Positions 3,076-51,480 of a stretch of 64,000 nt of DNA are shown in pieces. Numbering within the stretch: position 1 is the stretch's first letter; every line of letters begins with the position of its first letter. Source of the stretch: Patiria pectinifera. Its lineage: Eukaryota; Echinodermata; Asteroidea; Valvatida; Asterinidae. Position numbers and translations under genes: made by a program. Where the stretch lies: assembly GCA_029964075.1 (NCBI GenBank), contig CM057135.1, positions 10,132,863 through 10,196,862 of the forward strand, read 5' to 3'. The notes below the pieces were generated by a model. The model was not told the DNA's origin. It saw only the letters and a program-made list of their open reading frames with translations, and did not search any database.

Positions 3076-5788
3076 GTAGTAATTTCTCTGGAAGATAATT
3101 CAGTACAAGGTTTACATGTCAGAGCGTTCTTATGCTTCTGTACATGTGTATTTGCAGTAGTGAAGTAAATTCCTTTATATTCACAATTCCTTATCATACA
3201 GGACATCAGTCGAGCTGAGGAAATATTCAATGTCTACCTTGTTTCTGCATATGCAACGATGTCTTCTTCATTTTTGTGAGTACATCTTTACCTACAAGTA
3301 TGAACACATTGTCTACCAGCACTTTGTAAATCCAGCTCATTGTGCATCATGCAGTGTACTGATTAGTTTAGGTACGTAAATGTTCACATGATATCATTCG
3401 TATTAAATGTAGCAGTTTTGTTACAATGTCTCATTGTCGCAATTTGCAGGCGCCGCCATTATGACAAGATGACATAAGCTACTGAAATGGCCAGACATAA
3501 AATGCTGAATTTATAAGTAGACTTGGTGTAGTTCAGAAAAAAGGCAAAATGAACACAAAAATACTAGCATTGGATCTAAAATATTTGGGCAAGAACATTC
3601 TATTAGTACCATGAAGTGCAGCTCACATACAGTCATTTGGTAACTTGATTAATCACTATGAGTTCCAATTGTAGTTTTACTTAATATTCAGATGTTAAAC
3701 ATACAGGGACCACTTGCTAAAGCATTAACTATATTTCTCAACAAATATTGTACCATGAGTGAAATAGAATTGCATGTGATGAATACTCACAATTGATCAT
3801 AGCACATACATTGTAAGCCATTTCGTGAATACCGCCATCCTTGAAAATTTGGGTGGAGGGGGGCATTACAATGAAAAGATGTCCCATCATGCAACTGTAT
3901 TGCATTGTAATGCCTCCGGGTACTCTTTTGCTTGTTTGTGTCCTCATTATACATTGGTGTCCTCCATCATTTGCCTTGGTGCAATTTCCACATTCCTTGG
4001 TGCTCCTTGATACAAACATTTGAGGAGATGCGGCAGTAGAGGGCGCTGTTGTAGCTTCCGTGTAATTTTTTTTTGGCCTTATGCTAGGCTTTGACAAGTA
4101 TTTTTTTCATCTCTCCATATCCATGTATACAAAGTCAAACAAAAAACTATTGTATTTCTTGTTTTTCTTCCAAAAACTACACCCTGCTAAAGAGCTATAG
4201 CTCCCGAGGATTAACATACTTGATACGGTGCAAATTTAAAGGTGCAATGCAGGAACAAAATTTTACAAACAGATAAGTGCAGAAAAAATGATAATGAAAT
4301 GTGAGTAAAAATGGGTACAAATTATTTGTGAGTGAACGTCTTTTGTTTTTGTCAGTACAGTGAATGACACAGCTGTGTTGGTGGTGGAGAGAAGTACAAG
4401 TAACGTGCGTCTATTTGCTTGCATGCTATCAAAAAGTGAACGTATCCTTTTCCTGATGTGACACCCATCCAAGCTGGAGATTGGTACCCGTAATCTTCAT
4501 AAGCGAGTTGTTTTCCAACCTTTAATATTAATTACCTCTAGTCTCTTAATAAATGCACAGGACAGCCTGTTACGTGGGGTTTACTCACTCTTGGTTATGT
4601 TGTTAAAATGCTCAGAAACAACACAAGATTTGGCAAATAAAAGCCAAGGTCTTGACATTAAATTTAGACAGTGAATTACGGTAGGAACAATAATCATGGT
4701 CCATGAAACATCTGTCATTTATTAGTTGTTATAACAACATTGTATGCAAATTGACTCCTGGTAAATGAGTCACTGAAACCCCTTCATCTTTGGTCCAATA
4801 TTTATGGTAGCTGCATTCAGTGCATTTCATCTCTTAAATATTTTTATTTCTCTATGGTTGCGGGTACAGAGGGATTGGGTTGATTTATCAATTTTGATGA
4901 TAATTAAGCAGTATGATGAATGATGTAATGAAGACATGGTAGAGTTATAAGGTGAGTATTCTACAAAAGAATATCACAAATAAAATCCAATCGACAAGCA
5001 TTTATTTCATAAACAATTGTGTGCATTGTGGCTGTACTTTCAATCATGGTCATTTCAATTGACACATTTCAAAGAAGTGCTTAAAGCAAGGGTACAATTT
5101 AGAGAAAAAAATAGATTTAAACCCCCCAAAACAAATCGTATTTAAAAAAAAAAACATTTAGATTTTTTTATATTAAAAAAAAAAAAAAAAAAAAACCTGC
5201 ATGAACAACTCAGCGTCTGTCACAAGTAAATTATCACAAGGAAGTTGTTGTTCTCAATAACAGGTTATATTTATACATTCATTATAAAGGCATCAAATTA
5301 ATGTTCTTGCCATAAACATGATATAGAAAACTAGCATTTTGGCAAATAGAGAGTATCAGATGGTTACTTCAGAAATCTGCAATGAAAAGTTAAATTTGTT
5401 TTTAATTTGTGAAATTTAAAACACTATTTTTGTATAGGTCCATCATGAAAATTGATTATTGACACTCCTTTTTTCAATCAAAGGAAAAATACATTAATTA
5501 GTTGAATCAATAAGCCAGTTCGGTATTTTGACTGCACATGTCCACAATGATGCGAATCACAGAAATATTCCGTTTTGAAAGTGCATCAACGCAGGAGCAC
5601 GACCACTTCTAAAATGTCTATTGTTTCAGATTTCACACTTCTTGGCAATAAAGGACATGTGGAAATCTGAATCTTGATCAAGCTTGTAAATTCCAGGTGT
5701 CAAGGCCAACCATTGCGGAATCTCTAAAAGTTGATGTAGAGTAGTAGGCGTAAGCGGCACATGTCCATCCAAAAGAACAGCACCAAAT
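3076..5788. other. No supported gene
   Basis: This is A/T-rich sequence with poly-A runs (5140-5195). An 11-bp inverted repeat gcattacaatg (3863-3873) / cattgtaatgc (3903-3913) is present. Open frames of 60-120 codons occur on both strands around 3740-4100, but they overlap each other and show no recognisable domain. I see nothing else. Confidence 0.4.
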
Positions 5789-6870
5789 GTGACCCGCTCT
5801 GCAAAAATGAGTCTGATGTATGGAAACAATTGTTTTTGTTTGTGAGACATTCTGAAAGAACAGCAAATAAGCTTTAATTTGATATATGGTACAACCCTGT
5901 GGGGCACTGCATTGTGGTTTTACGATTTTTTGAAAGTTGTGTTATTGTACTTATTTTATAAAGTCTATAACGGAGAAATAGGGCTTTTAAAATCACTGTG
6001 AATCATCACACTTCTCTTTGCAGATTACCTTAGCAACCAATGTGTTCCCGAGTTTGTATCCCCTTAAAACTTTACAGTGATTGTCCCTGAGTGCTTTCAA
6101 ACTATTTTTCTCCAGCTAAAATAAATTTCAGTATTTATTTATTAATGATACTGATCATAATTATTATGGTAATTTTTTTTTTTATTTAAATTATTGTCAA
6201 ATTATACAAAACGCAGATCTGATAACAAGGACTGAATGACTCAACAGTGACACACTTTAAGTTTCATTTTCCCAATATTTATAATTGTAATGACCTTCAA
6301 CTACTAAAAACAATTTTTTGTTTACTTTTACTGCTTTTGGGTAAAAAAATTGTGTTTTTGGTCAAAAAATTGTAAAATCGAAAATATAGCGTTAAAATAC
6401 TGATGAGAATATTTCTCATGGTGCTTCCTCGTGGGGTTTCCATTCTTTTTATCTTGCTATTTCAGAATCTCCTTATGTGATTTAAAAAGAAAACCTTTTC
6501 ATTTGTACCTTTTTCTGGGGTGAAAAATAGCGTTTTAGGTAAAAAAAAAAAAAAAAAAGAGGGGGAAAAGATGCAGCTTTAAAAGTGTCGGAAAAATTCT
6601 TGTTTGAATAATTTGTGAGGTTTCCTCCGTATTTTGCTTGCTTCTGCAGAGTTTCCTTTGTTTGGTCATAATTATTTCTTTTCAGCTTACTTTTTCTGGG
6701 TAAAAAACAACAATTTTGGTTAAAAAATAAATAAATCAGAAATACAGTATTCAAAACACTAAGCAAACTAAAAGTACATGACTTTTCATGTGTTCCTCGC
6801 TAGCTCTGGACGGACCATTCCTGTTGACATGACTTAACAGAGAGTAAAAACTGCTGTACATAACGATTTC

Positions 6871-9800
6871 CTAATTTGTATTGGTTGGCTTTGGAACCGA
6901 TGGGAGAGGGCAAGAGGTGTTTTTAGTGGTTTCACTGCAGAATTCCCGGATCTTTTCATAGAGGTACCACTGGCGTTGCGGATCCAAGCCTGGTGGGATC
7001 TCAGGAGCTGGTAGATCGGCCGGTGGATGGCGTGTGGTGGACTTCAGCAGCTGGATTGGAGTCTCAGGGTCGTCGATTGACTTTCGGGCAAAGATAACTC
7101 CAGGTTCGTCAGCTGTTGCCCTGGAATGACAAGGCAAAAACAGAAACAAAACTAAGAATAAGGATTTAATCTTAAATCGGCAACAACTGATGTAGCTTCC
7201 TTATTGATTCTCTTTCAATTTTGGCAGGTACTTTTTTTTAGGGGGGGAGGGGTGTTGAGGGGGGGGGGGGTTATAAAAATGACATGAAAGTTTGTTTTTC
7301 TTTTTAAATTTGTCCAGCCCATCAAATATCCAAGGTAAAGATATGAGGTCAAAATTAGTACCCCCTTTTCTTAGAAAGTTTATCTTATTACCTGAAATGT
7401 TGCAAGCCCTTGATACCAGTCAGAGGTCGAAAGAATGTGCTCAGGAACTTGTTCCAGTCGTACTGCTGAACAATGATGTCCCCCGCCTCGGTGCCAACTA
7501 GTTGAGGGATGTTGGTACCTGATGGAGTGCTGCTACGGACGACATCACACATCTCGTCCAAGCTGGACACCGGTGTTCTCCTGAAACGTTGCTTCAAGAG
7601 ACCGAAGCACCAGTCCGGTGCGAACTTCGTGTGGCCAACCACCATGAAATGCATTTCAATGGATTTGTGATGGCCACAAATACATCTCCAAAGAATGTAC
7701 CACATCATTATTTTGTTTTTGTTCTGTCCACTGCAATTATCGCAGTGAAGGTGAGCCAATGTCTCACCCAGGCTGTAGTTCGAAAAAAAAATGGTGAAGA
7801 TAACTGATGACGGCATTACTTCCCTTGGACATGGCCACAGCTTCATCGACAAGGTAGTTTACCTGTTGGGTTGCCCCCTCACAGTGAACGCCGAAGATCC
7901 CCAATTTTCTCGGTGTCAGGAAGTACACTGGCCCAGGTTGGAAAGGATCTGAGGGATAGTGCACCTGTTGAGCGAAATCAAAAGAGTAGTGCATCTGCAC
8001 TGCTCTACTACAGGTATCATTCCTACCAAGGCCTCTGATTCCCTGCTGTTATACCACCTGCTTTGCTGCCTCTACTTGACTTCGGTACAAGGACCGCTCC
8101 TGGCTGACCTTCTTGATGTGCTCCTCCTGGGTTTTGCAGCGGTCCAACTTGTCCATGTCTGACATGTTGGCGGACTTGTAGAGCATGCTGTTGTTTTGCT
8201 GGCATACCCAGCATACGTCTGCCATGGGCCGACAGCAAACGATGTAGGGACAGAGGTCGTTCCACAATTTTCTGAACGTGGAAACTGCTACGACCTTACC
8301 ACCTGTATCAATATACAATCAAATACAAAAACAAAAATAAGTTTTGGAAATGCATGTAGCAACCGACATGATGTACATGCACGTGTACGCATTAAGCAAG
8401 CCTCCTCTCACATTTCTTCTGCCTATTATTTAAAAAAAAAAGAGGAAAATAACTGTTGGGAACCAGCACTACCCATAAAGGGTGCTTGTATTGTTTCACA
8501 CCAATCGTACACGTTGCATGTACATGTCATTCACACCTCATGAAGGCTTGTAGCTAATGGAAGCATTGTGAGCTAATTATTACATACCCGAATCACCCAT
8601 GGCAGCTTTGTACTGTCTCCATACATTGATCTTTGACTCGCTGGAAGGAAGCAGTCTGATGTCATCTCTTTTATAGCCAGGTATGCGGCCCGGAAGCAGG
8701 ATGGCATGAACCTCGGCGTAGTTCACGATAAATCGCTGAACAGAAGTGATGTCCATGTAGCTGAGATGTCTTCCCTTTGTTTCGATGTTTCCTCGGACAG
8801 CAGCCGTGGTCACGGAAATGCTTAGTTAACGCATTTAACTTGTTGACACTCATGCTACAAAAAGGAGGGAAAGAAAACTTGAGTACATGTACATGTACAA
8901 GGATGTGATGAATTCAACTAAAGCACTAATGTGTACATGTCGTCGTGTCCGTGCAACAAGGTCGTGTCTCCTAAAATTTAATTTACAAGAACCGCCAGTT
9001 TTAGAATGTCAAAAGGTCGTATCTTGCTTAAAATAACCCGGATGTTCATACAAAGTCAATAATTATTGACGTTGAGAAAATGTTGTTGCATGGAGCGTAT
9101 TCGTGCGAGATACAACTTTGTTGCAGAATTGAGTTACGACCTTGTTGCACTGATGCGACGATGTGTAGTAACTCAGTACGCAGACATCTAAATGCCTAGT
9201 TCCAGTTCATTTGAAAATAATAAATAAATAAACGACACTTACTTGTGGAGAAAGAGAAAAGTGTCCCTGCAAATCGCCTGACCATGGAAGAAGTAGGATG
9301 ATCTCTGGAAACGGCGATCTGTCTGCTCTTTCCGCTTGCTGTATGCCGTTTCACCACCGCATCTTGTAAAACAGCTAATTTGGCCGAGGATAAACATGTC
9401 TTTCTCCTCTGTTTTGTGAGAGAAAAAATAACATTTTTTTTTTTACATTATCAAAATTTAAATCGATTCAGAGAAGGCAGGGTTTTTATTCTTTCAAGGG
9501 TGATTTTAAAACCGAGCTACGTATGGTCAGCGAAGATAGCATGATAGTTATCGGTTATGGCAGGGGTGAAATGAAATCCAACTGCAAGCACCCAAAGTTA
9601 GAACTTGCAGGTTGGAAGAGATATAGACAAAGATAAACAAAATAAAACGTTTACCCTACCTCTTGTAAGCTCTGACATCTCATCACGAGAATTCATGAAC
9701 TCTTCCACGGTGAAAAGCCTGTAGCATGGACCACCATCAAAACGCTTGCAGTTGCATCGAAAGGCTGAAGCCCGTCTGTGGTGTTCGTCAACGTTCTGCC

Positions 9801-10137
9801 CCTGAGGCTGTTGGCCCGCTTGATTTTCTTCCCTGGGACGGGGTTCGCGGTCAACATTTTCCAGGCCGGTTTCAGCGGGGATCACTAGCAATGGTAGATC
9901 CTCGTCATCGTCGTCATCGGTAGCTTCGGTGTCCATGTTGGAATTATTTTCTTCATCTGACTGATCGCTGTCGTCATCATCGGAGTAGGAACTGTCGCTG
10001 TCGTCAGCATCGCTTTCGCGAGGCTGGACGAAGTATTCTTCAACGAATCTCCGAGCCAGTGTGCTTTCTTCGCCGCGAAAATGAACATTTCGCAGGTCAT
10101 TCATTGCTTCGGCGAAACGCCGGTCTTGTTCGTCCAT
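6871..10137 (-). pseudogene. Putative DDE-type transposase, HCDNCSGQNKN family, six exons
   Basis: Six minus-strand exons with consensus GT/AG sites: 10137-9660, 9408-9243, 8854-8588, 8302-8058, 7994-7392, 7120-6871. All junction phases agree, giving about 670 codons. Exon 1 is acidic and then Cys-rich (RCNCKRFDGGPCY). Exon 2 has DMFILGQISCFTRCGG. Exon 3 has LLPGRIPGYKRDDIRLLPSS. Exon 4 has DVCWVCQ, probably zinc-binding. Exon 5 has YSFDFAQQVHYP, LHCDNCSGQNKN and GHTKFAPDWCFGLLKQRF. Exon 6 has RQWYLYEKIREFC. From memory this is a multicopy animal family (DUF7869-like); treating the three Asp residues as a catalytic triad is inference. Two single-base discrepancies, in exon 3 and in a 9-T run of exon 5 near 7785, each shift frame by one extra base. 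They are either recent decay or sequencing error. Confidence 0.75.
8941..9160 (+). mobile_element. MITE copy 1, in intron 2 of the transposase-like gene
   Basis: It begins cgtcgtgtccgtgcaacaag and ends with the inverse, cttgttgca...gcgacg. It aligns along its whole length with the reverse complement of 15231-15466 (shared words caacaaggtcgt, ctcctaaaa, gagatac.actttgttgcagaat). There is no coding capacity. Target duplication is unclear. Confidence 0.7.
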
Positions 10138-10803
10138 TTCTGGTCGCTTTAGCAACTCAAACTTACCTACTTTGGTATTTTTTACAGCAAAAATACACTC
10201 AAAATCAGGAACTCAAATCACACCTTGCAACGCGGACGCACAAGCTTCAGCAGCACGGCGACGTACGTCGATGTCAGATCAATGATGTAATGCTGTTGAA
10301 TGCGCATGCGTTGTGTGACGTTTTCGACTGACTGACCAATTGTAGCGCATGATTTGCATCATGTGATGGAAAAAACATTGCGGCATGGTAACAAGAGGGG
10401 TTTGTTTACGTGACAATTTTCATTCATAACATGATTTTTATAGAACCTTTGAAATTTGGAATCCTAAAGAGTAAGCGGTGTCAGCCGATACCAAAATCAT
10501 ATGGGGGTGTGTATTATGCGAACGAAAAGGGTTGCAAAAAGGGCCCGATATTTACAACAAAACTGACAAAATTAATGAATCACTGAAACAAAACAGTCGA
10601 CAAAAGCTTTATTTAATCAACTTTAGGAATGGAAATAATTACTGGGACCAACAAAACCTAAATATATAGATATCAAGCAAGCCAAAAAACCTTAAAACAA
10701 AAAATCGGTTTTCGGAAAGAAAAACCACCCCTACCACGTTCAGCCACTCTGTACGTAAAACTGTACTACGCGACATCCGACTCATTTTTGCAGAGCGGGT
10801 CAC

Positions 10804-11047
10804 AAATAATTATGATGTGCTTGTACTTTTCTGTCTTTGTGTAATTCCAGTCAGAGAACTTTCCCATATGGCACACAATGTCAAGTGGATTCTGAGAAAT
10901 AGACAACAAAATTGACACAATTTATAGGCTAATTTCCAAAATTTATAATAAATATAAAATGCACTTTATACATTAAATTTCCATACTTAAACAATATGGT
11001 TTACAGCTCATGAACAATACAAATAGGCTACAGCCTCATTTTGTTGC
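10804..11047. other. Short spacer between transposon and LINE
   Basis: A/T-rich sequence without a gene. Its right end contains cattttgttgc (11037-11047), which nearly matches cgttttgttgc at 15046-15056 and may be the left copy of the LINE target duplication. Confidence 0.35.
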
Positions 11048-11696
11048 GTGTGTTGTGTGGGTAACTACAGGGTGAGTGTGATGCGTCTAGTGCAGTAGTG
11101 TAGTCGTAGTTAGCATTGCACACCCCGCTTCCTACCTTCTGCTGCTGCCGCTGGCTAGCCCCGTTTCGGGGCGAAAAGGGAGCTGAGTGCGTAAGTCTCC
11201 CCTGCCAGTACATAGCCTCTCCGCCACCAAGACTCTTGCAGTGCCTCCCCGTGGCAACACACGGTAACTGGGTGTCTTGCGACCCCAGGCTGAATCTGCA
11301 AGGGATCTCGGAGTTGCAGTGGTCCCCAGAGACATGGTGTCCAGGCCCACCGGTGTGTGGACACGCCCTGGTGCCATGTCAGCCACTGCGAAACCACGGC
11401 AGCAGGTGGTGGATCTCCTTGCTGGGCATCTACAATAATATTGCAGCAATGGCCAACAGGGACTCCAGCTGGGCATCTGGGACGTCATCTCAGTAGTGGC
11501 CAGGTGGGACTCATCAGCAAAGTCTGACACTGCGGGGCAATTTCTGCCTGGCCATGCCGTCCGGAGCTTCTCCTGCCGCTGGAACCCTTAGACAGTGATC
11601 CAGTGAGTGGGATGAGTACCCGCGCAATGCTCATCCTACTTTAAATTTCTGCGCAGGCCAACCGGCAACAAGTCTCAACTGACAAGTCCTCTTGCG

Positions 11697-13439
11697 GTGC
11701 TAGCAGGCCCGAGAAGCTGGAAGCTGGTAGCAAGTAACTTGCGCTTGTGCGGCTCTGAAGTGATGGTCGTGCAACATAACAGGGTGATAGTGCTGCAATG
11801 TCCTTCCAGGGCGACCAGGCGGCCCTATGGGAGGCCCCGCCTGCCTCAATCCGAGGACGCCTCTAGAAAATGTGAGGTAAAAAAGGCTCACCCTTATCAA
11901 CCTGAACGAAAACAAAAATTTCAACTCGCATGCTGGAACATGCGCTCTTTACTTGACAATAACCCGAACCTCCCACGGAGGAAGACAGCCTTGCTCTGCA
12001 AGGAACTTGAAGCCTACATAATTGACATTGCCGCTTTGTCAGAGATGAGTTTCTCCGACACAGGAGAGAGGAAAGGAAAGTCCCACACTCTCTTCTGGTC
12101 TGGTGTCCCACATGGCTCACGACTTCAAGGCACGTCTGGGACGGGGTTTGCAATCTCCAACTGTCTTCTTTCTCAGCTTGACGAACTCCCAAAGCCAGTT
12201 TCTGACAGAATGATGACCCTTCGTTTTGCAGTGTCCGACACAACTCATGACACCCTCATAAGCATATATGCTCCAACGTTAACCAGCGCTCAAGCAGACA
12301 GTCATGTCTTCTATTCACAACTCAAGGCAACGCTCAATAACGTACCCCAGACGGATGTCATCATCGTTCTCAGAGACTTTAACGCAAGGGTCGGAAGTGA
12401 CAATGTTACGTGGCATGGAGTCCTAGGCAAGCATGCACGTGGTAACCTCAACGCTAATGGCGAGCTGCTCTTATTACTCTGCAAAGAGTTCAATTTGAGC
12501 ATCACAAACACCTTCTTTGACGTCCCAGACAAGCACTTCTACTCCTGGAAACATCCAAGATCAGGCCACTGGCACCTCCTCGACTATATTTTAGTCAGCC
12601 AGAGTGCCATGAAGGATGTCTGTCTCACAAGAGCCATGAGAGGAGCAGAGTGCTCCACCGATCACTTGATGATCAGATGTCGAATGAAGCTCACGATTCA
12701 CAAACCCAGGAAGCGAACAGCACCTAAGCCTCTGAAGAAACTGGACATCAAGAAGCTGTGCAACGAATCCTCATGCTCGGGTCTACAGACTGCCTTTCAC
12801 CAGAACTTTGCCATAACACCAGACAGTGACGTAGACGCCAAGTGGCAGCACTACAAACACTGCTTGTACACTGAAGCAGAGAAAGCCCTTGGCCACCCTA
12901 AACGCAAGGATGCCGATTGGTTCGATGATTGCGAAGGTGACATCACTGAGTTAATCCTTTACAAGCGTAAAGCCCTGCAAGCCTATCTCTCTAAACGTCA
13001 TTGCTTGAAGACCAAAGCTACCTTCAAAGAAGTAAAGGCCCGCCTACAGCGAGAGCTTCGACGCATGGAAGATAATTGGTGGAATGCCAAGGCCGAAGAG
13101 ATCCAGGCTTTTGCAGATGCAGGCGACACCCAAGGCTTTTTCCAAGCTCTCAAGACAGTGTACAGACCACAAGGAGCCCAGTCTAACCCAGTGCTTGCCA
13201 CTGACGGATCAACTCTCCTGACGGAAAGATCTGAAATCTTGGAGTGGTGGAAGGTCCATTTTAACCAACTCCTCAACCAGAGCTCTAACGCAGATTACTC
13301 GATCATTAAGAGGATCCCACAACGGCCAACATTACACAGTGCATACGACGAGCTGAGGCTTGATGAAGTCAAAACCGCAGTGAAAAGCCTCGCAAGAAAC
13401 AAGGCTCCTGGATTGGACGGCATCCCCGCCGAAATCTAA
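11697..13439 (+). pseudogene. LINE ORF, endonuclease and start of reverse transcriptase
   Basis: The 580-codon open frame has no trustworthy initiator; the endonuclease starts near residue 75. APE motifs appear in order: LACWNMRSLL (Asn), IAALSEMSF (Glu), IIVLRDFNARVG (Asp-Asn, with Arg in place of the usual Gly before DFN), and CSTDHLMIRC (Asp-His). The RT begins at the end with RNKAPGLDGIPAEI. The frame stops at 13439 immediately after this motif, and coding resumes at 13479 in another frame, so the copy is inactive as read. Confidence 0.75.
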
Positions 13440-13478
13440 CAAGAAGGAGGAGATCACATCCTGCAAGGGCTCTTTGAT

Positions 13479-14790
13479 GTGTTGTCAGCCATCTGGACCG
13501 AGAAGAAGATCCTACAGGACTTCAAAGATGCCATAGTCATCCCCGTCTATAAGAAAAAGGGCAACCGACGAGACTGCGGCAATTACCGTGGCATTTCCCT
13601 GCTTGCTTTAGCAGGAAAAGTTCTAGGAAAGGTCATCCTTAAGCGGATACAACCCATTCTGGATGCCAACCTACCTGAATCACAATGTGGATTCCGTAGC
13701 TCTAGGTCAACTATCGACATGGTATTCACCTTACGTCAGTTGCAAGAGAAGGCTATGGAGCAGAATATGCCCTTGTACATGGTCTTCATTGACTTTTCGA
13801 AGGCCTTTGACACGGTGAATAGAGATTGTCTATGGGCTCTCCTACAACGCTATGGCTGTCCCCCAGGTATCACCAGGCTCATCTCTCAACTGCACAATGA
13901 AATGATGGCTCAGGTGTCGTTAACTGGCTCCTACTCCGAGAAGTTCACAGTCAGGCGGGGGGTTAAGCAGGGATGCGTTCTAGCGCCTTCTCTCTTCGCT
14001 CTTTACTTGGCTGCTTTGTCCCTCGGATGGTGGAGTTTATCTCACAACCCGCAGTGATGGTCAGCTGAGGCGGCTAAAGGCTGCAACCAAAACCAGGACT
14101 GTCTGCGCCAGGATGCTCCTTTACGCTGATGACTCAGCCATCGTCTCGCACTCAGAAGCAGAACTGCAGGGCATGCTAGATACATTTCATACAGCAGCCA
14201 GCAGCCTTGGCCTCACCATTAACGTAACCAAAACAGAGGTGATGTTCCAACAAGCTCCTGGCTTAAGTGCACCAGATCCAAACCTCATGCTGAACAATAA
14301 ACGTCTCGAAGTAGTAAAGCATTTTACTTACCTTGGCAGCACAGTGTCTGACAACAACAGTCTTGATAAAGAAGTGGAGAAGAGAGTCAGCTCTGCAGCT
14401 ACCTCATTCGGAAAACTCCAAACACGTGTGTGGAAGCGTCCGGGCATCCGACTCCCCACCAAATGCAAGGTTTACCGAGCCGTTGTTCTGAGCTGCCTCC
14501 TCTATTCATCCGAGACGTACACACTGTACAGACGACACATACATCGACTTCAACGAGTGCAGATGTCACATCTAAAACAACTGTTGAACATCAGCTGGAA
14601 AGATAAGATCACTAACGTTGAAATACGCAGGCGTGCCAATATGCCTAGCGTTGAAGCACTGCTGACAAAAAGCCAACTGCGGTGGTCCGGACATGTCATC
14701 CGGATGGACGACATCAGACTCCCGAAAGCTGTGCTCTACGGTGAGCTGAAGGAAGGCAGAAGAGGAGTCGGCAGGCCAAAACTGTATTAA
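13479..14790 (+). pseudogene. LINE ORF, reverse transcriptase core and C-terminal domain
   Basis: Two open segments (13479-14057 and 14113-14790) carry RT motifs in order: YRGISLLALAGKVL, ESQCGFRSSRSTIDM, FIDFSKAFDTVNRD, GVKQGCVLAPSLFALY, then LLYADDSAIVSHSEAE (catalytic YADD, near 14110-14160). The C-terminal domain follows (FTYLGSTVSDNNSLDKEVEKR, LLYSSETY, SQLRWSGHVIRMDD). The catalytic Asp residues are all visible. Coding changes frame near 14057-14113 and stops at 14790, after which a further segment (14814-15020) carries the tail. Confidence 0.75.
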
Positions 14791-15230
14791 ACGCCACCTC
14801 GTAGCCGGCAATATTGGCGCTGCCACATGGGAAGCTGCTGCCAATAACCGCTCAGAGTGGCGACGCCGAATTACCAACGCTGCAAGGGAAGTGGAAAACA
14901 GATTGGAAATTGAAACCCTTGAGCGCAGTCGTCGCGAGCCAGCAGGACCGACTCCACTTGCAACCAGCAGGGAGAACACCTTCCCAAGTGCCGCCACTGC
15001 GTACGACGTCATACTCATAATGAGTGACAGCCGATGATGATGAGTCGTTTTGTTGCAGGAATAATTTTTGAAATAGCTTTTAATGATATAGGCCTACATG
15101 TATGTAGGTGACACGTCTATGTAGACACACTGCTTTTGCATGTAACCAATGCATGGCACACAAGCTTTGTTCAGAGGATAACAACTCGAACTTTTGGCAG
15201 CAACTTCAAATGTTGCTTCAATCTTCATAT

Positions 15231-15466
15231 CGTCGCGCCAGTGCAACAAGTTCGTAACTCCATTCTGCAACAAAGTCGTATCTCAGGTGAATATGCTCCG
15301 TGAAAAAGGTATCTCTCATAACACAACGTCCACTGACTTACTTTGTACATCGGGGTTAATTTAAGCGAGATATCACCTTTCGACATTTACAACTCGTGTT
15401 TCACGTACATGACGTCGCATGTTGTTTTAGGAGATACATGTACGACCTTGTTGCATGAACACGACG
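15231..15466 (-). mobile_element. MITE copy 2
   Basis: Bounded by cgtcgcgccagtgcaacaag and its inverse, ...cttgttgcatgaacacgacg. Its reverse complement aligns end to end with 8941-9160. Non-coding. Confidence 0.7.
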
Positions 15467-16680
15467 ATCTATCTCTGTACATGTGTTTGTCTGCTTACTT
15501 GGATTCAATTTCGCACTTCCAACCTCTTGAGGCTCCAGGCAGGTGTGAACCACCAGGGAATTCCCAACTGTGAATCTAGTCATCTAGACTACGAGACAGC
15601 CATTGCAGAAAGACTTGGACTCACTTTACTGCTTTAGGTACTAAACCATGAAAACAGAGATTTATAGATGTAAACTTTTAGTCAATCAGTTGAAAAGGGA
15701 CCTAAACTTGCTGAAATTTCGGTCATCAAACTTTCAAATTGGTTCTACCTACATTCGCCCAATTACCGACAATTACACAGAGCAGCAGTAAGCCTAGCCT
15801 GGTCCAAAAATGTGGGACTCTTATCAATACAGTGTATTACAAGAAAATAGACTGGCGGCTGAAACAACCAGTCCAACAACTCTTCAGTAATGTCAGCTGA
15901 CTATGCAAAAAGAAATATCTAGAATGTCAGGTACTAGAACGCTTTCTACACATTTCTCCATGGTTAGGCTTAGGCACCAGACTAATGACAATAAATGAAG
16001 AAGTCAGTCTTGTCAAACTTTTGGACCATGGATGGACATGTACAAGTCTAGTCTTTAGTCTCATTTTGAAATCACACTCCCGTTCTTGAATCATGACTTT
16101 CAAAATCTACCCATTACGAAGTTAGAAGATCAATTTATTTTTGCGTGATTTTCCAATTTTATATCGAATCGCACAGTGAACATTTTGAAAATGTCCCCCA
16201 AAATTAAGAAAATAATTCTCTAACACACTTCTGGTTGGGTGTGTAAATACAGATATTAATTGTTTATCAGAATTTATCAACTTTAGAGAAATAAAAATTT
16301 GGATTTTCCGAGATTTATTCAAGTACGCCACGTTGGGGAACACTCAGCTGATTTGTGCCCAATTTCCGGACGCCACCGTTTTTTAATTTCGAATAAAAAT
16401 GTCACGACACCGAAATTGTTCACAGAGGTTAAATAGCAAGCATTAAATAATAAGGTCAAATAACCAGTATTTCACTGAATGAATTTGAAGTTTGTCAACA
16501 AAGAAATTTGTTTACACACTACACGAGGAAAGGTCACCATGGGCAGGGTAAACATCAAAGTGCGCCTCGTTAAGGAACACCACTATAGTACTATATGCAG
16601 ACGTCACTAATTTTTCCCTGTAATGACCTTTGTATCAGTATTACCAATCACAAAGCGAGGAAAGAATGTTCCATCCTGAT
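15467..16680. other. No supported gene
   Basis: A/T-rich sequence with only short overlapping open frames. No repeat or domain could be recognised. Confidence 0.4.
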
Positions 16681-32174: not shown

Positions 32175-32238
32175 TTATTTACCTACTCCAATAGCTCGTA
32201 ACTAACTGAAGGTTCGGTGTATACGACCAGTTTACTAT

Positions 32239-33928
32239 TGTTACGAACCCAGAATGCTTGATTATGGAAATCTAGCGCCCTCTGGATTCACTCTGTCCAT
32301 GAAGTACACAGTCTAATTGTTGTCTTTTGCTGTTCCCTTATTTTACCCATTTATCGTAAATTGCCAACTTGCACTTTTATTCCCAGGGTCTCTTACCAAG
32401 CGCAGCGCATGATGCAATACCACGCGCGCTACTGCATGCATTATTCATGTAGCGATGTACATGTGTGCGACTGACCACACCTTCCTTCGCCCCAGCGAGC
32501 TAAGTTCCTTTCCCATAGCATGCGTGCTTTGGCGTTCTCCGAGAGCCTGCTCAGCGGCACGGAACATTTCTCTTCCCCGTGTGTTACCCATGAACACTAA
32601 CTGGAGTTCTCGGTCCAGTATTCCAGTCCCGTACTTAGCTCGAGGGAATGGAATGTTACCCTTGCGTGGTCGCATAGCTGGGCGTGGTAAGACATCCTGT
32701 GATGTAAATAACCTGTGACACAGTAACCTTTTAGCTTGTCACTCACTCCATCAAGGTTGCTTGAGATGTTGCGTAAACACCTTTGCACTCTGATCTAACT
32801 ATTTGCACTCACCTCTCTCTGTATTTGCACACTTCTCTCTCCATGTTTTCCCTATGTAAATGCACACGTTTCTAGTCTCTTGCACGAGGCACTCTTAGTA
32901 AATCATGCTCATGCATTATTTAATCCCGAGACTTCTACTGCCTGTAAATACCGGAGATTTTCCTCACTTTCGGCAGTGCGGCGAACCACGAAACCAATGT
33001 AGTGCGAACGAACCCTAAACCCAAAGTTGTGCGGCGAACTTATAGGTTGTGCGGTTACTCGTATGATGTGCGACGAACTCGACTCTGACAGACCGATTGT
33101 TGTGCGACTCTTGTCACTACGAAGCATCGGTCTCCCTCGGTGGTTGAGGCGCGATGAAGTAATAGTGCAATCACTAGTACTAGTGTTATTATGAAGCATC
33201 CTTCTCCTAGATCCCTCGAGGAGTGTGTAGAAGCTGGTGAAATAGTAATACACTAGTCCCAATGGTGCTGTGCGGTTTCGAATGGCCATTGGACTGCTAG
33301 TCTTAATTTGAACATGTTGTGCGGTTGTCTGGTGTTCTAGCCGAGCCAGAGCTAGTTCATCCCCGTCACCACAGCGGACCGCTCCCGCTGTGGCCAGCCG
33401 GCTCCCCGTAGCCATTCCCCCCGTAGTTCAGCTATGCTAGCCCGGTCTTGTCATAAACACTATCCTTGGTGCATAGTGCCTCGATTGACCTGGGATACCC
33501 GATACGCCACATGCACACTTTGGTTCGAACTGTGGTGAGGCCTGGTACACTTGCTGGCCCCGTCCAGTTGCCGTTGCCTCCCCGGTCACCGTAGCGGACC
33601 GCTCCCGCTTCGGTCTGACCGTCGATAATCCCCACCATGCCGGTGCCCACTCAGTTCGTATTGGTTGACATGGTTTTGCCATAGTACATAGTACATGTAT
33701 AGACTTTGTAGACACCAACCTGTTATCTCTATAACGCTACCAAACACTACCAAAAGGAGAAACCCTATAGGTTGATGAAATCTAACACAGTTATGTAAAG
33801 TGATGAGATAAATAAATCAGTGTATTGACATGTGTGACTGTAACCCCAAAAATCTGTTTCCCTCCAACTTATTGAATTATTGTTGACTCTAATAAATGTT
33901 TCATGAACTGCTATTAGAGAACGCAACA
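32239..33928 (+). repeat. Gypsy I 5' LTR
   Basis: Starts tgttacgaacccagaatgct and probably ends ...acgcaaca just before the primer-binding-like site. The first 669 bp (to 32907) match the 3' LTR. If the end is right the LTR is long, about 1.7 kb. The end is inferred from the primer-site position, because the matching part of the 3' LTR is missing. Confidence 0.7.
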
Positions 33929-34093
33929 CTGGTGGCTAGCGGTGGGATACAGACTTATACATCTGATTTGTTTTTCAAACCTTTAAACACTGAACTCTAA
34001 GTTACACCTTTAGTAACTTCGACACAGCCAGCCATTACAGCTCGACCGAGGTTATACACGCTATCTTCGTGGTGCCATTCCCCTGTATACACC

Positions 34094-35180
34094 ATGCCAA
34101 AAAAATATCGTGAGTCGCGTAGGCTTAATGCCTCTGCAGAAGCAGATGACCTTGAGCTGTCATTCGGCTCCGTATCATTGCGGCCTGATGAAGCAGACCA
34201 GCTGGACTCTCTGAAACGAGAACTTAAGAAGCCAGAAAAGCGTGCTGTTGAGTCAGAGCAACGGGCAGCGTCACTGCTTAAGGCAAGCACGCCCTCTATG
34301 CCATCGCCAGGAACACCTCAGTCGTTATCCGGCGAGTCACCGGGGATTGCTGATGATTCCCCTGTGTATCTTACCCCAGAGTCCACTAGTCCCCCCAGTA
34401 CAAATAATCTGGCAGACAAACTTGTTGTGCCGTCACCTTCCCAAGTGCCCCCAATCGTAAAAACAGAGCAAAAAGTTTGATGTGCCTCTTCCTAGGCAGG
34501 GAGAATTCAATGAGACCGGGGCATGGGAGGGGTTCATCCGTCCATGCATGGGTCTAGCAGGGGACTGTGGGTGGTCAGCCGAGGAAAAGAAATTCCGACA
34601 AATCAGCAGTCTAAAGGGCAAGGCTGCCGAGTTTGTTTTTCAACAACTCGATCCCTCAGCCCAACAAGACTTTGACAAACTTGTATCGGCGCTAGAGAGC
34701 CGTTTTGCTGAGCGGCGCACTCAAAATACCTGGCTTGCTCTACTGGAGAGCAAGAAACTTGCCCCCAAAGACAGTCTCACCGAGTATGTGGCGAACATTC
34801 GCCGCCTAGTTATGCGGCGGTACCCCACAGCCGATACCCACACTAGAGAAAGTATAGCCCTGAGACATTTCCTAAAGGGATTGCCCGATCAGCAGACCAT
34901 TGTTGCGATCGGCATGACCAACCCCAAAATACTAGAAGAAGCCCGGACAGCTGTAGAAAATTTCATGAGTCTTCGCGAGAACATGAGTCCAGGAAAAAAA
35001 AACCCTACGCGTCCATGCTGTCCAACCAGCCAAAACCCGCCGACAACAACAACAATAGCAAGGGCAAGTCAGATGTCACTTGCTATAAATGTGGTGAACT
35101 GGGCCACTTCGCTAACAAGTGTCTCAATCCAGCGGCAAAGGAAACCGTCGTCATTCAACCGACGGCGGGAAACTAACTAG
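34094..35180 (+). pseudogene. Gypsy I gag region, fossil
   Basis: Begins MPKKYRESRRLNASAEADD with a charged, Pro/Ser-rich N-terminal section, then a retrotransposon Gag-type helical domain (WEGFIRPCMGLAGDCGWSAE; SLTEYVANIRRLVMRRYP). A zinc-knuckle-like CYKCGELGHFANKC is readable near 35080-35115. Broken. Confidence 0.7.
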
Positions 35181-38100
35181 GACCGTGCCGTCCGGCCTGG
35201 CAACGGTCCAACCCCCCGAACACATTATCAGAATGGCCAGACAGCCATTCCAAGGCATTTCTGCATTTTTGCAGGTGCAAATCAACGGTACAGAGACCGA
35301 ACTCTTAGTCGACACAGGAGTTCCAGTTACTGTTATTTCTTCGGAATTTTTCGACAGCATCCCCGCTGAACAGCGCCCTCAACTTAATCCCCACTGTGAG
35401 CAGTTGAAACTCCAGACAGCGAACAATGAACACATTGCCATCCAAGGCATTGCCCCTATCCGTATTGATATTGGCCAGCAACAATTTCAATGGGACGCGT
35501 ATGTCGCACCAATTGGAGATTCAGGGATCCTAGGCTATGACTTCCTGTATTTCTTTGACTGTGTATTGGAGGCACGAAGCGGCATTAAAATTGCCGGCAA
35601 CTGGTTCAAGTGGACAATCAAGGGCACCCCTCCATGTGCCATGAAGATTGCGTTAAAGGAAAACACTGTCATCCCCACAAGTAGTGAATGGATAGCGGAA
35701 GGTGTCGCCGACACTCAAAAACTCGGCTCGAACTTTGCCATTGTAGAGCCAGCATCAAGCGACAGTCTAACTCACAATATCGTGGTCGGCAGTTCCCTTA
35801 TTGACCCCAGCCGAAAAGACATCGGCATTCCCGTCAGACTCATGAACACGTCGCCCGAGAACATTGAACTTCATGCAGGTGTAACACTTGGTTACCTGCG
35901 TGACGTTGATGAGATAGAACTCATAGCCGAGCATGAAAACAGCGATGAAGATCACATTTCACGTGTGATGCGTGCGTGTAGAGTACACCAAACTTCGCCT
36001 GCTGTCGACACGCATACCCCCCTTGCCCCAAGTTCCTCTACTCGTACTGATCAATGGTCAGACGGTCTGCAAAAACTTTTCGAACGGAGTTGTGAAGATC
36101 TGTCTCCCGCGCAGCAGAAAACATTGTGCGAACTTTTGGCCAAACACGAGAACACATTTGCCAAGTCCGCAGAGGATTTTGGAAGAACTTCAATAGTACA
36201 GCACACTATTGACACCGGAGACACTCGTCCTATACGTCAGACCCCCCCCCCCCAGACGCCCCCCTAAGGCATTCCAGGGTGAGGAGGAGAAAGTTCTTGA
36301 GAGCCAACTCAAGGTAGGTGTGATCCAGGAGTCAACTTCGCCTTGGGCCTCGCCAATGGTTTTCGTGCACAAGAAGGATGGCACAACTCGCCCATGTGTC
36401 GACTACAGAAAACTGAACACTGTAACGCGCCGTGACGCGTATCCCTTACCCCGCGTTGATGACTGTTTAGATTGCCTCAGCGGAGCCTAAATCTTCAGCA
36501 CACTTGATCTGCAGTCAGGCTACTGGCAGATTGAGATGAAGGAGAAAGATCGCCCCAAAACGGCGTTTGTGACCAGGAGTGGCCTGTACGAGTACATAAC
36601 TATGCCATTCGGACTTTGCAACGCGCCAAGCACCTTTGAGCGTTGTATGGAACTCGTGCTTAAAGGTTTGCAGTGGAAAACTCTGCTGATCTATCTCGAT
36701 GACGTCATCATCCTATCCTCCACTTTCTAAGAACACATACAGCGACTCGATGAGGTTTTGCAGCGGCTTGATCATGCTGGACTTAAACTCAAACCAAGCA
36801 AATATGAACTTTTCCGGGAGAAAGTCATTTTTTTGGACACACCATTACCCAGGATGGTGTTAAACCTGACCCCAGCAAGGTTTCCGCTGTGCAAAACTGG
36901 CCAACACCTAAGATCATCACCGATGTGCGCTCGTTTCTTGGACTGTGCCCTTATTATCGCCGATTTATCGCACGTTTTTCGACGATAGCTGGCCCCTTAA
37001 ATCGTCTGTTAGAGGCCGGACAGACATTTGACACTTTAAAAGGCTTTTGACACTTTAAAAGCCGCATTAACCGGTGATGAAATCATGTCCTACCCGAACA
37101 ATGATGGACTTTTCATCATCAACACCGATGCCTCCGATACTGGTATCGGCGCTACCTTGTCACAGCTCCAGTGGTGTGAGCGTACCCAACGAGAAGAAGA
37201 ACGACCGATAGCCTACGCTAGCCGGTCAATGACTAAAACACAACTGCGATAATGCACCACTTCGGTGGATCATGTCCTTCCGAGATCAAGTTGACCAGAT
37301 GGCTCGATGGTTGCAGAGTATGGCCCAGTTTGACTTTAAGATTGAACATCGTGCAGGGAAGAAACATGGCAACGCAGATGCCCTCTCCAGGGTGTCGTGT
37401 GACCCTGACGATTGCCCGTGCTACGACGGCAGAACCATTCTCACTGAACTACCGTGTGGCGGTTGTGACAAGTGCGTTGCTACAAGTGAACTATGGTCTG
37501 ATTTCAATAAAGTCGACAACGTAATCCCTTTATCAACCCGAACCATCAAAACTGACTCAGCTGAAGTTCAAGCCCCTCCGACCAAGCCGACTGACGTCCC
37601 GCCCCCGTGCAGTGACGTCATCTCCGACACCGTCAAGCCCTTATCCTTTGCGACAGTCCTCGTACTGATGGCAACGATGGTAACCCTCCTACTGGTTCCT
37701 GTGTGCAGCTTAGGTAAACTCATTTGGCGCTCGTGCAGTGAGTTTACCGGCGACTTTGACGATGGACAGTTCAATAGTCGTTTTGCGCACACAACCATCC
37801 CTATTGGAGAAACTCCCCGACACACCACGTCCGCCGCCATTCGGGCAACACGACCAAAACGTGCTAAAAATTCCCCTGACTCAGTGAGAAAAGAAAAAAA
37901 ACTGCGCCTCGCCCTGTGTCCCCGATAAAGATGCAGAATCTGGTTCAAGTGCCGGATCGCAAAGTGCAGAACTATCTAATCTTACTGACGAGCCAAACGA
38001 CCAAGAAAGTGATGGTTCAAGTGATCGTGCCTCCATGGTCGCTAACACCAGTTCCAGTGCTGGACATCACTCATGTTGGGTTAACGGTTACACATCAGAG

Positions 38101-39442
38101 GAGATTGCTGCAATACAACGGAGACCCCGAACTGAAAGTTGTACTTGATTGGTTGGACCAATCACCCCAGCGACCCAGTAGAGACACAGTGGCTCGCCAA
38201 AGCCCCGCAACGAGAAATCTGTGGTTGCTATGGCAACAACTTGTCTTGCAGAACGGTGTACTGTACAAACGGTGGGTGACTTCTGACAGAACGAAGTCAT
38301 ATCTTCAGCTCGTAGTCCCCGACCAGCTAAAAAGTACTGTGTTACGCGCTACCCATGATGCCGTAACATCTGCTCATCTTGGTGTCAAGAAGACAATCAC
38401 AAAGACCAAACGTCAGTTCTACTGGTATAAGTTAATGGAGTCCGTCCGTGAGTGGATTAGAAAGTGTAACAAGTGGTGCCCGCAAAAGGCCACACCAAAC
38501 TCCCCGAGCTCCTCTAGAGGACTACCGAGTAGGCGCGCCTATGGACAGGTTCGTCACTGATATCTTGGGACCCCTTCCCGTATCAGAGCGAGGAAACAAG
38601 TACATCCTACCCGATCCCCGACCAAACAGCAGAGACAGTAGCCCACAAAGTAGTCTACGAGTTCATTTCCTGATATGGTGCTCCACTTGACATTCACTCC
38701 GATCAGGGTCGAACCTATGAATCGAAAATTTTCAGCAAGTCTGCAAACGTTTGGAGATTCACAAAACTAGAACGTCTCCCTACCATCCTTCAGCGAACGG
38801 TCAGGCTGAGCGGTTTAATTAACCAAGTGCTGGTTAACATGATTTCAGCCTACATTGACGAGAACCAACGAAATTGGGACGTTCACCTCCCGCTGCTCAC
38901 TTCAGCCTACAGAAGTTGCCAGCATGAAACCACAGGGTACACACCAAACATGCCCATGTCGGTCGCTCATGCTCATGTCAGCCACTCGTCAGAAAAGGGA
39001 CCATGACGCTCGTGTATCCAATAATAACTACACCGTTGGTGATTTGGTGTACATGAGAGACAGCACTAAAACTGTTGGGTTGTCCCCAATACTGAAACAA
39101 GCAAAGTGGAAAGGACCATGCATCGTTCAGAAGAAACTTAGTGACATGCTGTTTGAGATCCGGTCAAAGCAACGGGGGAAAACCAAAATCCTTCACCATG
39201 ACCGACTGAAACAGTACCACAGCGATGATGTCCCCAAATGGATGAAAGACTTGCAGAATACTTTGCGCCTAAACTGTCCTCCGCCTGAGACACCGTCCAT
39301 TCCTTCGACAGCCCAGAACAGCATCCCAGAACTACCTGTTGCAGTCAATGCTCCCCCAACAAAAACTGCAACGAACACTCCCCCTATCCGCCGAAGTTCT
39401 CGCACTAAGCGTACACCAGCGAGATTCGTAGATATCGACTAG
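35119..39442 (+). pseudogene. Gypsy I pol region, fossil
   Basis: Domains in canonical Gypsy order: aspartic protease (LLVDTG at about 35300), RT ([20 protein letters not shown] at about 36390; IYLDDVII at about 36690), RNase H (NTDASDTGIGATLSQL at about 37120), integrase with an H2C2-like region (about 38360-38480), the core start (DRFVTDILGPLPVSERGNKY at about 38540) and a C-terminal GDLVYMRD region, ending ARFVDID at 39442. Broken at several places. Confidence 0.8.
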
Positions 39443-39623
39443 CCCCCTGCCTGTCCGTTTTCTGTTGACCCCGCTAAGGTCAGGAATGCGGAAGTAAACA
39501 CTGTAGCGACCCTGCGTTGCCTGTCCATTCGCAAATCCGGACGCAACAACTGGTGGCCATCGCAGTGTGTGTATATAGCCCGTCAATGACATTGCCCGGC
39601 TGTCGGACCGCCAGGTACTGATA

Positions 39624-40682
39624 GTGCATGACAGCTGGTTATGTTCTGTCATCTCTTTTGCTGAGATACCAAGGCAACCAAACATGCTCAAAACACAAAC
39701 AAACACTTGTTTCTATGACGGCAAATCAAAGGGCGCAACATCCTTCGGAGCAGCTGTTCTCACCATCTTGTTGACATCGTGCGTTACAGCCATGAATTGC
39801 AATTACTGTGAAAAGTCACTGCGGGATGTTTTCGCCCTCGACAGGCATTGCCAACATTCTCATTGGCCATGGTTCATGAGAAACTTTATATGTGGGTTCT
39901 GCAAAAAGGGATTTTCAACCCATTCCCGACTTGCATCACACATGCTTAGTGCTGTTCACACTCAGAAGCAGGCTGACGCAAAAGGGCTCATCTCACCACA
40001 GCAGAATGTTCCCAGCGACGAGACGCGTGGCTTCTGCGTCACCTCCAAAGCGCAGACATCACGCCCAACCAAAAGGCCCGCCTAGAGCAACATGTGTTTG
40101 TTATGGCAGGGGAACTGAGCTGCTCGCCAGTTTATGCACCCCCTTCACCCGCCAAGTCTTCACGCTGCAGCACCCCGCTGCAGGATGAGCGATCGGACAC
40201 GGAGTCTACCGAACCACCTCAAGTCCCGATAGCCAGCAGTCCAGTGGAAGAGAAGCCCCAGCCGCCCGATATAGGTTTCCTGATTCCCTCGGTGCCGGGG
40301 CCGGTTCAGGCGCCCTCCAATATACCCGCCTTCACACCTGCCCGGCCAGCCTTCGACGAGATTTCGACTCCCCTGCGTACCACACCGGCGTTTCCCCGAC
40401 CAGCTGTTTCCAAGCCAGACCCCACACCGTGTGTCTCCGCAGTAAGCCTGCAAGACATCATGGACAAACTCCGTGAACAAGACGGAACGGATGGACAAAC
40501 TGGAACGGGCCCTCCAGCCCAAAGTAGTGGAAATCGCCCAGGCGCAGTCCAAAGACATTGCAAAGAAACTCGAAGACAGCGCCGTGCAGGTGAAACAATC
40601 TGTACTTCAACAGAGTGATGCGGTGCGGAGATACACCAAAACCGTGGCGGAGGCGCTGGCCGGATCATTCAAGTCCCTGTAA
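39624..40682 (+). pseudogene. Gypsy I accessory region: C2H2 fingers and coiled coil, fossil
   Basis: After pol, a plus-strand frame reads MNCNYCEKSLRDVFALDRHC and then FICGFCKKGFSTHSRLASHM, two C2H2-type zinc fingers (39793-39960). It is followed by a Pro-rich stretch (40100-40440) and a charged helical, coiled-coil-like end (KLERALQPKVVEIAQAQSKD). It occupies the position where some Gypsy elements carry an envelope, but nothing envelope-like (signal peptide, membrane anchor) is seen. Function unknown. Confidence 0.6.
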
Positions 40683-41018
40683 ATATACATTACCTAGACA
40701 GTATAATCTTCGTATTTTTCCTTTATTCCTATAATCGCTTCATAATTTTTTTTTTAGCAGTTTTTAGTCTCTGTCGCATTTAGTTTTTTTTAATAGTAGT
40801 TTAGATACAAAACATCAAAAAGTGACAGTCACCACGAACTCTAGAAGAACGAATTATGCTGTGCCCTATGTAATTCGTGGTTTTTTTTGTTCACTATTCT
40901 ACCTCGATCTGAACTCATGAACTGGAGTTTCTACTAGCCAACTTCAAATAACTGTATTGACTCTAATGTTTTCCTCTTGGTTACAACGAGGACGTTGTAA
41001 AAACTTGGGGGGGAATAG

Positions 41019-41685
41019 TGTTACGAACCCAGAATGCTTGATTATGGAAATCTAGCATTCTCTGGATTTACTCTGTCCATGAAGTACACAATATTATTCT
41101 TGTCTTTTGCTGTTCCCTTATTTTACCCATTTATCGTAAATTGCCAACTTGCACTTTTATTCCCAGGGTCTCTTACCAAGCGCAGCGCATGATGCAATAC
41201 CACGCGCGCTACTGCATGCATTATTCATGTAGCGATGTACATGTGCGCGACTGACCACACCTCCCTTCGCCCCAGCGAGCTAAGTTCCTTTCCCCATAGC
41301 ATGCGTGCTTTGGCGTTCTCCGAGAGACTGCTCAGCGGCACGGAGCATTTCTCTCCCCCATGTGTTACCCATGAACACTAACTGGAGTTCTCAGGCCAGT
41401 ATTCCAGTCCCGTACTTAGCTCGAGGGAATGGAATGTTACCCTTGCGTGGTCGCGTAGCTGGGCGTGGTAAGACATCCTGTGATGTAAATAACCTGTGAC
41501 ACAGTAACCTTTTAGCTTGTCACTCACTCCATCAAGGTTGCTCGAGATGTTGCGTAAACACCTTTGCACTCTGATCTATTTGCACACACCTCTCTCTGTA
41601 TTTGCACACTTCTCTCTTTATGTTTTCCCTTATGTACATGCACACGTTTCTAGTCTGTTGCACGAGGCACTCTTAGTAAATCATG
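41019..41685 (+). repeat. Gypsy I 3' LTR, interrupted
   Basis: Starts tgttacgaacccagaatgct directly after the polypurine tract and follows 32239-32907. It stops at catg (41685), where the Gypsy II 5' LTR begins. The remaining part of the LTR was not found elsewhere in the window. Confidence 0.85.
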
Positions 41686-41907: not shown

Positions 41908-42538
41908 TTGGCGACGAGGATAATTCTTTGCGTGCGTCGCAATTACATTAGGATAAACTAAGAGAAATTTTGCGTTCTTTTTGTGATGTCTTGAATATTC
42001 CAGACCAAAAAAAAAAAAAAAAAAGGAAAAGAGAGAGAAGTTATACACTATAAAAGTCAGTCAAATTCCTGATTCAGATAGTTTAATGTCCTTTATTTTT
42101 GTCTGCATATGTCAAAGAGGTCTCGGTCTTTGAAGAATTCGTAAACGTTTATGAATTAACCCCGCATGCTGACATCATTCGGCGTTTGTTGGAATTTGCT
42201 AGCATGTTTGGCTGATTCGATAGACGTTTGCTTCCAAACGTTTTATTACCAATCTTGTTTATTATTTGCTTATATAATGTTTTTACTGGAAGTTGCTGTA
42301 TCGCTATGTAACTAAAAAAAAAAGAAAAAAGGAGAGAAAGAAATTGACAGGACGGACGTTTTGCCATACTTTTTATGATTATATTTGCTGTAAATCAGGT
42401 CAAACTGCTGTGTGTCACTCACAGCAGAAGGCAGTTACAGCAAATTTTGAGTGACAGGTCGATTGAATAGACCATAGAACAGCAGCTTCCACTTTCCGTA
42501 AATTGTAAGTGTAATTGATTTAACTTGGTAGTTTAAAC

Positions 42539-44434: not shown

Positions 44435-44637
44435 GAGCCGGCCGTGATGGCCAACGACCGGCTGAGTTGGAGCAGAACGGCCAACAATCGCAAACTAAAA
44501 CTCCGGCGTTTGCTGGAACAGGTTTGGGTGAAGGAAATGATAACCCATTGCAGCTAAGGGAAATACAATTCTCACCAAATAATAACGGGGTAAGCCTTGT
44601 AATACCGATTTAGGTCCGAGGGGTTTATACCCAGGCT

Positions 44638-50998: not shown

Positions 50999-51021
50999 TT
51001 TTATTTATACGAGTTTTAAAT

Positions 51022-51438: not shown

Positions 51439-51480
51439 CTATTTAATGTATAAAGCCTTTTAAATTATTATTAAAATAAA

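What the first reader, a model, noticed from the sequence alone, without database searches (positions are those of the whole stretch)
5789..10803. Candidate uncharacterised cut-and-paste transposon with 31-bp TIRs and a spliced DUF7869-like gene
Seen: 30 of 31 bases match between inverted ends starting gtgacccgctctgcaaaaat; both ends are flanked by aaat; exactly one gene lies between them, with six exons whose phases all agree. Known (from memory): proteins with HCDN(C)xGQNKN and GHTKFAPD are multicopy and usually left as 'uncharacterized' in animal genomes. Inference: this is the transposase of a DNA transposon superfamily with 4-bp target duplications, the three conserved Asp (YSFDFAQ, HCDNCSGQ, FAPD) being an RNase-H-fold triad.
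Basis: partly seen in the sequence, partly recalled or inferred. Interest (0 to 1): 0.82.

Follow-up and report, generated by a model that had tools for sequence, protein, structure and literature searches.

The report
Broken Sola2-type DNA transposon
This is a dead "jumping gene" in an animal genome whose protein, known to databases only as a domain of unknown function, looks like the enzyme of a cut-and-paste transposon found in animals and bacteria, most likely the already described Sola2 kind.

Summary
The element is real: 31-bp inverted ends (30 of 31 match) at 5789-10803, AAAT on both sides, one DUF7869 gene inside. The gene has five exons, not six, and this copy is dead: two frame breaks and an in-frame TAA. 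In the 613.5-Mb host assembly the end occurs 131 times (reversed pattern 0). Of 26 elements read at both ends, 24 are 248-455 bp long and 19 have an exact 4-bp duplication (mispaired control 21%). Genome-wide, AWWT precedes 38 of 42 exact ends. Two AlphaFold models, animal and bacterial, show an RNase H-like transposase core; its three Asp are kept in 241, 241 and 238 of 243 relatives. Six bacterial relatives lie between inverted repeats, with AWWT in 11 of 12 flanks. So a DDD cut-and-paste transposon is well supported. "Uncharacterised superfamily" probably is not: these are the printed features of Sola and Sola2. No Sola2 transposase could be obtained for the final comparison.

The parts
5785..5788 (.). 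left target-site duplication AAAT
   Evidence: read; identical word at the right end
5789..5819 (+). left terminal inverted repeat, 31 bp, GTGACCCGCTCTGCAAAAATGAG...
   Evidence: 131 genome-wide matches to its first 25 bases at up to 3 mismatches
10773..10803 (-). right terminal inverted repeat, 30 of 31 bases complementary to the left
10804..10807 (.). right target-site duplication AAAT
9660..10137 (-). exon 1 of the transposase gene (ATG at 10137; acidic N-terminal part, start of a Cys-rich motif)
   Evidence: frame and splice site; its end matched by a relative
9243..9408 (-). exon 2
8588..8854 (-). exon 3; frame break at about 8770-8792
   Evidence: two tblastn segments in different frames; exon length does not fit the splice phases
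7392..8302 (-). exon 4: CxxC motif, long helix and RNase H-like catalytic core with D (YSFDFAQ), D (HCDNCSGQNKN), D (GHTKFAPD); in-frame TAA at 8049-8051 and frame break near 7785-7789
   Evidence: DUF7869 E 7e-16; helix and core by comparison with the models of relatives
6871..7120 (-). exon 5, ends in a stop codon

Best explanation
A 5015-bp cut-and-paste DNA transposon, most likely of the Sola2 group. This copy is a decayed autonomous element; its ends are shared with at least two families of short non-autonomous relatives (MITEs, about 250 and 440 bp). Inferred working: the DUF7869 protein binds the inverted ends, and an RNase H-like core with three Asp cuts both strands at the outer G of GTGACCC... 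and joins the ends to a target AWWT with a 4-base stagger. Repair of the gaps leaves the 4-bp duplication, and the MITEs are moved in trans. Shown here: ends, copy number, duplications and target preference, predicted fold, conserved triad, bacterial relatives with the same layout. Not shown: DNA binding, cleavage chemistry, and who last mobilised the MITEs.
Confidence: 0.78

Rival explanations
1. An undescribed transposon superfamily, found in animals and bacteria, that merely has the same duplication length and target word as Sola2.
For: No paper in the library holds DUF7869, PF25273 or IPR057191 (the last number recalled) or four protein motifs of the family; no NCBIfam model reaches its cut-off in five proteins; the bacterial-type proteins that bear names are 'hypothetical protein' and once 'chaperonin'. 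The host element starts GTG; Sola2 ends are recalled, not read, as GRG.
Against: DDD, 4-bp AWWT duplications, 2-9 kb length, and bacteria plus metazoa are together what is printed for Sola and Sola2.
Confidence: 0.18
2. A member of another known superfamily with 4-bp duplications (Ginger, Chapaev, Academ, Kolobok; lengths recalled).
For: 4-bp duplication; integrase-like predicted fold.
Against: Duplications are not TTAA; Pfam finds only DUF7869 above cut-off, no rve or other transposase model. These superfamilies were not compared by profile.
Confidence: 0.04
3. A host gene that happens to lie between two unrelated MITE ends.
For: 131 ends in the genome, many of them in MITE pairs, and only this place is seen with both ends and gene.
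Against: The gene is one of 37 dispersed DUF7869 places; six bacterial relatives have the same gene between their own inverted repeats with AWWT flanks; one exact 4-bp duplication frames the whole 5015 bp.
Confidence: 0.02

Closest known systems
Sola2 (Sola superfamily, Bao et al. 2009, not held; known here only through passages of PMC3627910 and PMC10741241)
   Same: DDD transposase, 4-bp AT-rich duplication of the form AWWT, short inverted ends, size range, presence in bacteria and animals
   Different: direct transposase similarity not tested; the dictyostelid Sola2 protein is 888 aa with 12-21-bp ends (PMC3627910), this one about 690 aa with 31-bp ends
Mos1 mariner and retroviral integrase catalytic cores
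   Same: predicted RNase H-like core, three acids at corresponding secondary-structure positions
   Different: at most 16% identity in the rows listed; mariner targets TA; retroviral integrases have Glu as third acid, while Mos1 has Asp as here (recalled)
Pfam DUF7869 proteins of animals
   Same: same domain, same triad, 39-66% identity over the aligned parts among the 120 listed
   Different: those with names are 'uncharacterized' or 'hypothetical'; their ends were not read here

Membership tests
Sola2 | DDD transposase (three Asp) | tested here: met
   Asp in 241, 241 and 238 of 243 aligned members, at RNase H positions in predicted models; catalysis itself not tested
Sola2 | 4-bp target-site duplication | tested here: met
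   19 of 26 exact, control 20.6%
Sola2 | AT-rich duplication AWWT (PMC3627910) | tested here: met
   38 of 42 exact ends genome-wide; 46 of 51 fetched ends
Sola2 | 2-9 kb, inverted ends 11-1124 bp (PMC10741241, for Sola as a whole) | tested here: met
   5015 bp with 31-bp ends; five bacterial elements 2056-3539 bp
Sola2 | present in bacteria and metazoa (PMC10741241, for Sola as a whole) | tested here: met
   most of the 12 bacterial records are MAGs or draft contigs and some could hold other DNA
Sola2 | transposase similar in sequence to named Sola2 transposases | not testable with these tools
   no named Sola2 protein reachable; Bao et al. 2009 and Yuan and Wessler 2011 not held
Ginger | Gypsy-type rve integrase domain | tested here: not met
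   Pfam scans list no rve in seven pieces of the gene region (E up to 1) or in five relatives (E up to 0.1)
Kolobok / piggyBac | TTAA duplication | tested here: not met
   exact duplications are ATAT, AAAT, ATTT, AATT
RNase H-like (DDE/D) transposases | RNase H fold with catalytic acids on strand 1, strand 4 and the last helix | tested here: met
   models and structural comparison; predicted, not solved; residue-by-residue superposition not seen

The most novel reading that the evidence does not exclude
DUF7869 marks a cut-and-paste transposon superfamily distinct from Sola1-3, with a transposase, an AWWT target and an end layout (G-rich start, A run at positions 15-19) held in common by marine animals and bacteria such as Desulfocicer and Thiomargarita, and so far filed in databases as an unknown domain.
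Probability: 0.18. Interest if true: 0.72.

Novelty: new member of a known kind. Interest (0 to 1): 0.42.

Why it matters
It gives a likely function to a Pfam domain of unknown function that appears as 'uncharacterized' proteins across animal gene sets, and to bacterial genes labelled 'hypothetical' or even 'chaperonin' that look like insertion sequences. Annotation of these genomes would change. If the group is not Sola2, a transposon superfamily spanning bacteria and animals has been overlooked.

Tried and rejected
Viral contigs: two scans for the protein found no relative. Plasmids and phages: no match to the bacterial protein. Multi-copy insertion in bacteria: the family occurs once in 8 of 9 source genomes searched and twice, as partial matches, in the ninth; the source of L006 was not held; once in Desulfocicer. 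A phylum sample found 1 of 198, the query's own genome. So multiple bacterial copies were not shown. Bacterial ends: of 12 loci, 8 were searched for inverted repeats, five longest pairs shown for each. Six gave ends flanking the gene, 75-100% complementary (L001, L002, L003, L005, L007, L009); two did not (L006 in the stretch searched, L008); L004, L010, L011, L012 were not searched. Flank words: L003 AAAT/AAAT and L007 AATT/AATT exact; L001 AAAT/ATTT, L002 ATAT/ATGT, L005 ATAT/AAAT, L009 ATAT/ATTT not exact (L009 read by eye from the printed ends). Tally: L057/L058 and L060/L061 share flanks and are likely duplicates of one insertion each (18 of 24 if counted once); L045rc has a poor far end; all come from 30 loci and 20 stretches, plus the window, not from all 131 matches. 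Binomial figures assume independence. Internal-deletion origin of the MITEs: in 20 stretches only the ends, up to 44 bp, match this copy, so not shown. Literature: 9 searches; only passages were seen of PMC3627910, PMC3985635, PMC10294476, PMC10045372, PMC7998251, PMC5199201, PMC10741241, PMC4455052, PMC6786969; PMC2874221 had no hit; the rest were listings.

Full report
What is there. The window holds a 5015-bp element, 5789-10803. Its ends are inverted repeats of 31 bp with one mismatch, and AAAT stands directly outside both. Between them lies a gene on the minus strand. Tblastn with relatives and the splice signals give five exons: 9660-10137, 9243-9408, 8588-8854, 7392-8302 and 6871-7120. 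The copy is broken: the frame changes inside exon 3 (about 8770-8792) and inside exon 4 (a homopolymer run near 7785-7789), and exon 4 has an in-frame TAA at 8049-8051. Exon 4 carries Pfam DUF7869 at E 7e-16.

It is a mobile element. The window lies in a 613.5-Mb assembly of 1020 contigs. The first 25 bases of the end, with up to 3 mismatches, occur there 68 times forward and 63 times reverse; the reversed pattern occurs 0 times. Of 26 elements that I could read at both ends, 24 are 248-455 bp long, one 543 and the window's own 5015; some other pairs in the list lie about 0.9-1.5 kb apart. The short ones are MITEs. Copies of about 250 bp are 93.8-98.8% identical within two sub-groups. Those of about 440 bp are 73.2-98.9% identical; the closest pair is probably one insertion in a duplicated segment, and the next is 97.3%. 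So some moved recently. 19 of the 26 are framed by an exact 4-bp duplication, 18 of 24 if two likely duplicated insertions are counted once; pairing left and right words of different elements gives 134 of 650. In the whole genome 42 places match the 25 bases exactly, and 38 of them are preceded by AWWT. Such words make up 2.7% of 4-mers in the window. The target is thus A(A/T)(A/T)T, duplicated.

The gene. 259 proteins in the large database match the read-through query at E <= 0.001. Of the 120 listed, those with names come from priapulids, molluscs, annelids, echinoderms, nemerteans, sponges, corals and fish, all uncharacterized or hypothetical. The host genome has 45 matching stretches at 37 places by my count, on 12 contigs, several with open frames over 300 codons; apart from this copy itself none is more than 77% identical to it. 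A scan of bacterial and archaeal species genomes found 12 relatives; eight of them match spans of 513-542 of the 548 query residues at 31-36% identity, among them Desulfocicer and Thiomargarita, the others MAGs. A search with the Desulfocicer protein gave 551 proteins at E <= 0.001, 120 listed, most of them unnamed metagenome proteins. In a tree of 243 sequences the 120 found from the host gene and the other 123 (120 found from the bacterial gene plus three loci) separate, the host-gene side with support 1.0. Sampling follows the two searches, so this shows separation, not direction of transfer.

Bacterial elements. Six of eight bacterial loci examined have the gene between inverted repeats, 75-100% complementary. 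The ends begin GGG or GAG, once GGC, and a run of A lies at about positions 15-19, as in the host element (GTGACCCGCTCTGCAAAAA); the right end of L005 has AGAA there. Eleven of the twelve flanking words are AWWT, and two of the six pairs are identical. They are single copies in their assemblies, so movement in bacteria is inferred from layout. In five proteins no NCBIfam model reaches its cut-off.

What it is. [quoted passage not shown] Each of these was tested here and met. The remaining test, sequence similarity to a named Sola2 transposase, could not be run, because no such sequence was reachable and the founding papers are not held. I therefore file it as most likely Sola2, new as a member and not as a kind, and keep open that it is something else.

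How it works, and what is missing. Inferred from the fold and the duplications: the transposase pairs the ends, cuts at the outer G, and inserts at AWWT with a 4-base stagger. The MITEs must be moved in trans. A puzzle is that the only gene-bearing copy seen with these ends is broken here: none of 20 other stretches of about 9.6 kb at end matches held the gene, and on the eight contigs compared no other DUF7869 place lies within 50 kb of a listed end (the list shows 100 of 131 ends). The source may be lost, unassembled, missed by these looks, or present only in other individuals. The empty-site search for the whole element was sent six times and never answered.

Noticed in passing
G000 contig C7: 19 of 37 DUF7869 places lie on C7, which is 7.3% of the assembly (binomial about 1e-12 if independent), with a cluster at 41.0-42.3 Mb; unexplained.
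   Followed up: partly
window 8934-9167 and 15223-15467: A palindromic repeat of about 230 bp sits in intron 2 of the transposon, with a second inverted copy (71%) outside it: possibly another MITE nested in the element.
   Followed up: no
window 32236-41685: Two repeats of about 674 bp, 95.5% identical (32236-32907, 41016-41685), flank an aspartyl-protease frame and others that look Gypsy-like by eye: probably an LTR retrotransposon.
   Followed up: no
window 42524-47900: A second retroelement with reverse transcriptase (RVT_1 6e-16) and, by eye, a zinc-knuckle gag-like frame.
   Followed up: no
window 11616-14790: Probable non-LTR retrotransposon: endonuclease frame (Exo_endo_phos 1.3e-6) followed by frames that look like reverse transcriptase by eye (not scanned).
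   Followed up: no
window 50479-55691: An rve integrase frame (1.1e-11) beside frames that look to me like protein-primed DNA polymerase, recalled as a Polinton-like layout; Pfam gave no match for the two such frames scanned.
   Followed up: no
P0138: A bacterial DUF7869 protein of Candidatus Magnetoglobus multicellularis is named 'chaperonin' in public records, probably a misannotation.
   Followed up: no
L008: The record of a Cycloclasticus symbiont of a sponge holds a DUF7869 gene closer to the Capitella protein (40%) than the other long bacterial matches are (31-36%): possibly sponge DNA in the MAG.
   Followed up: no
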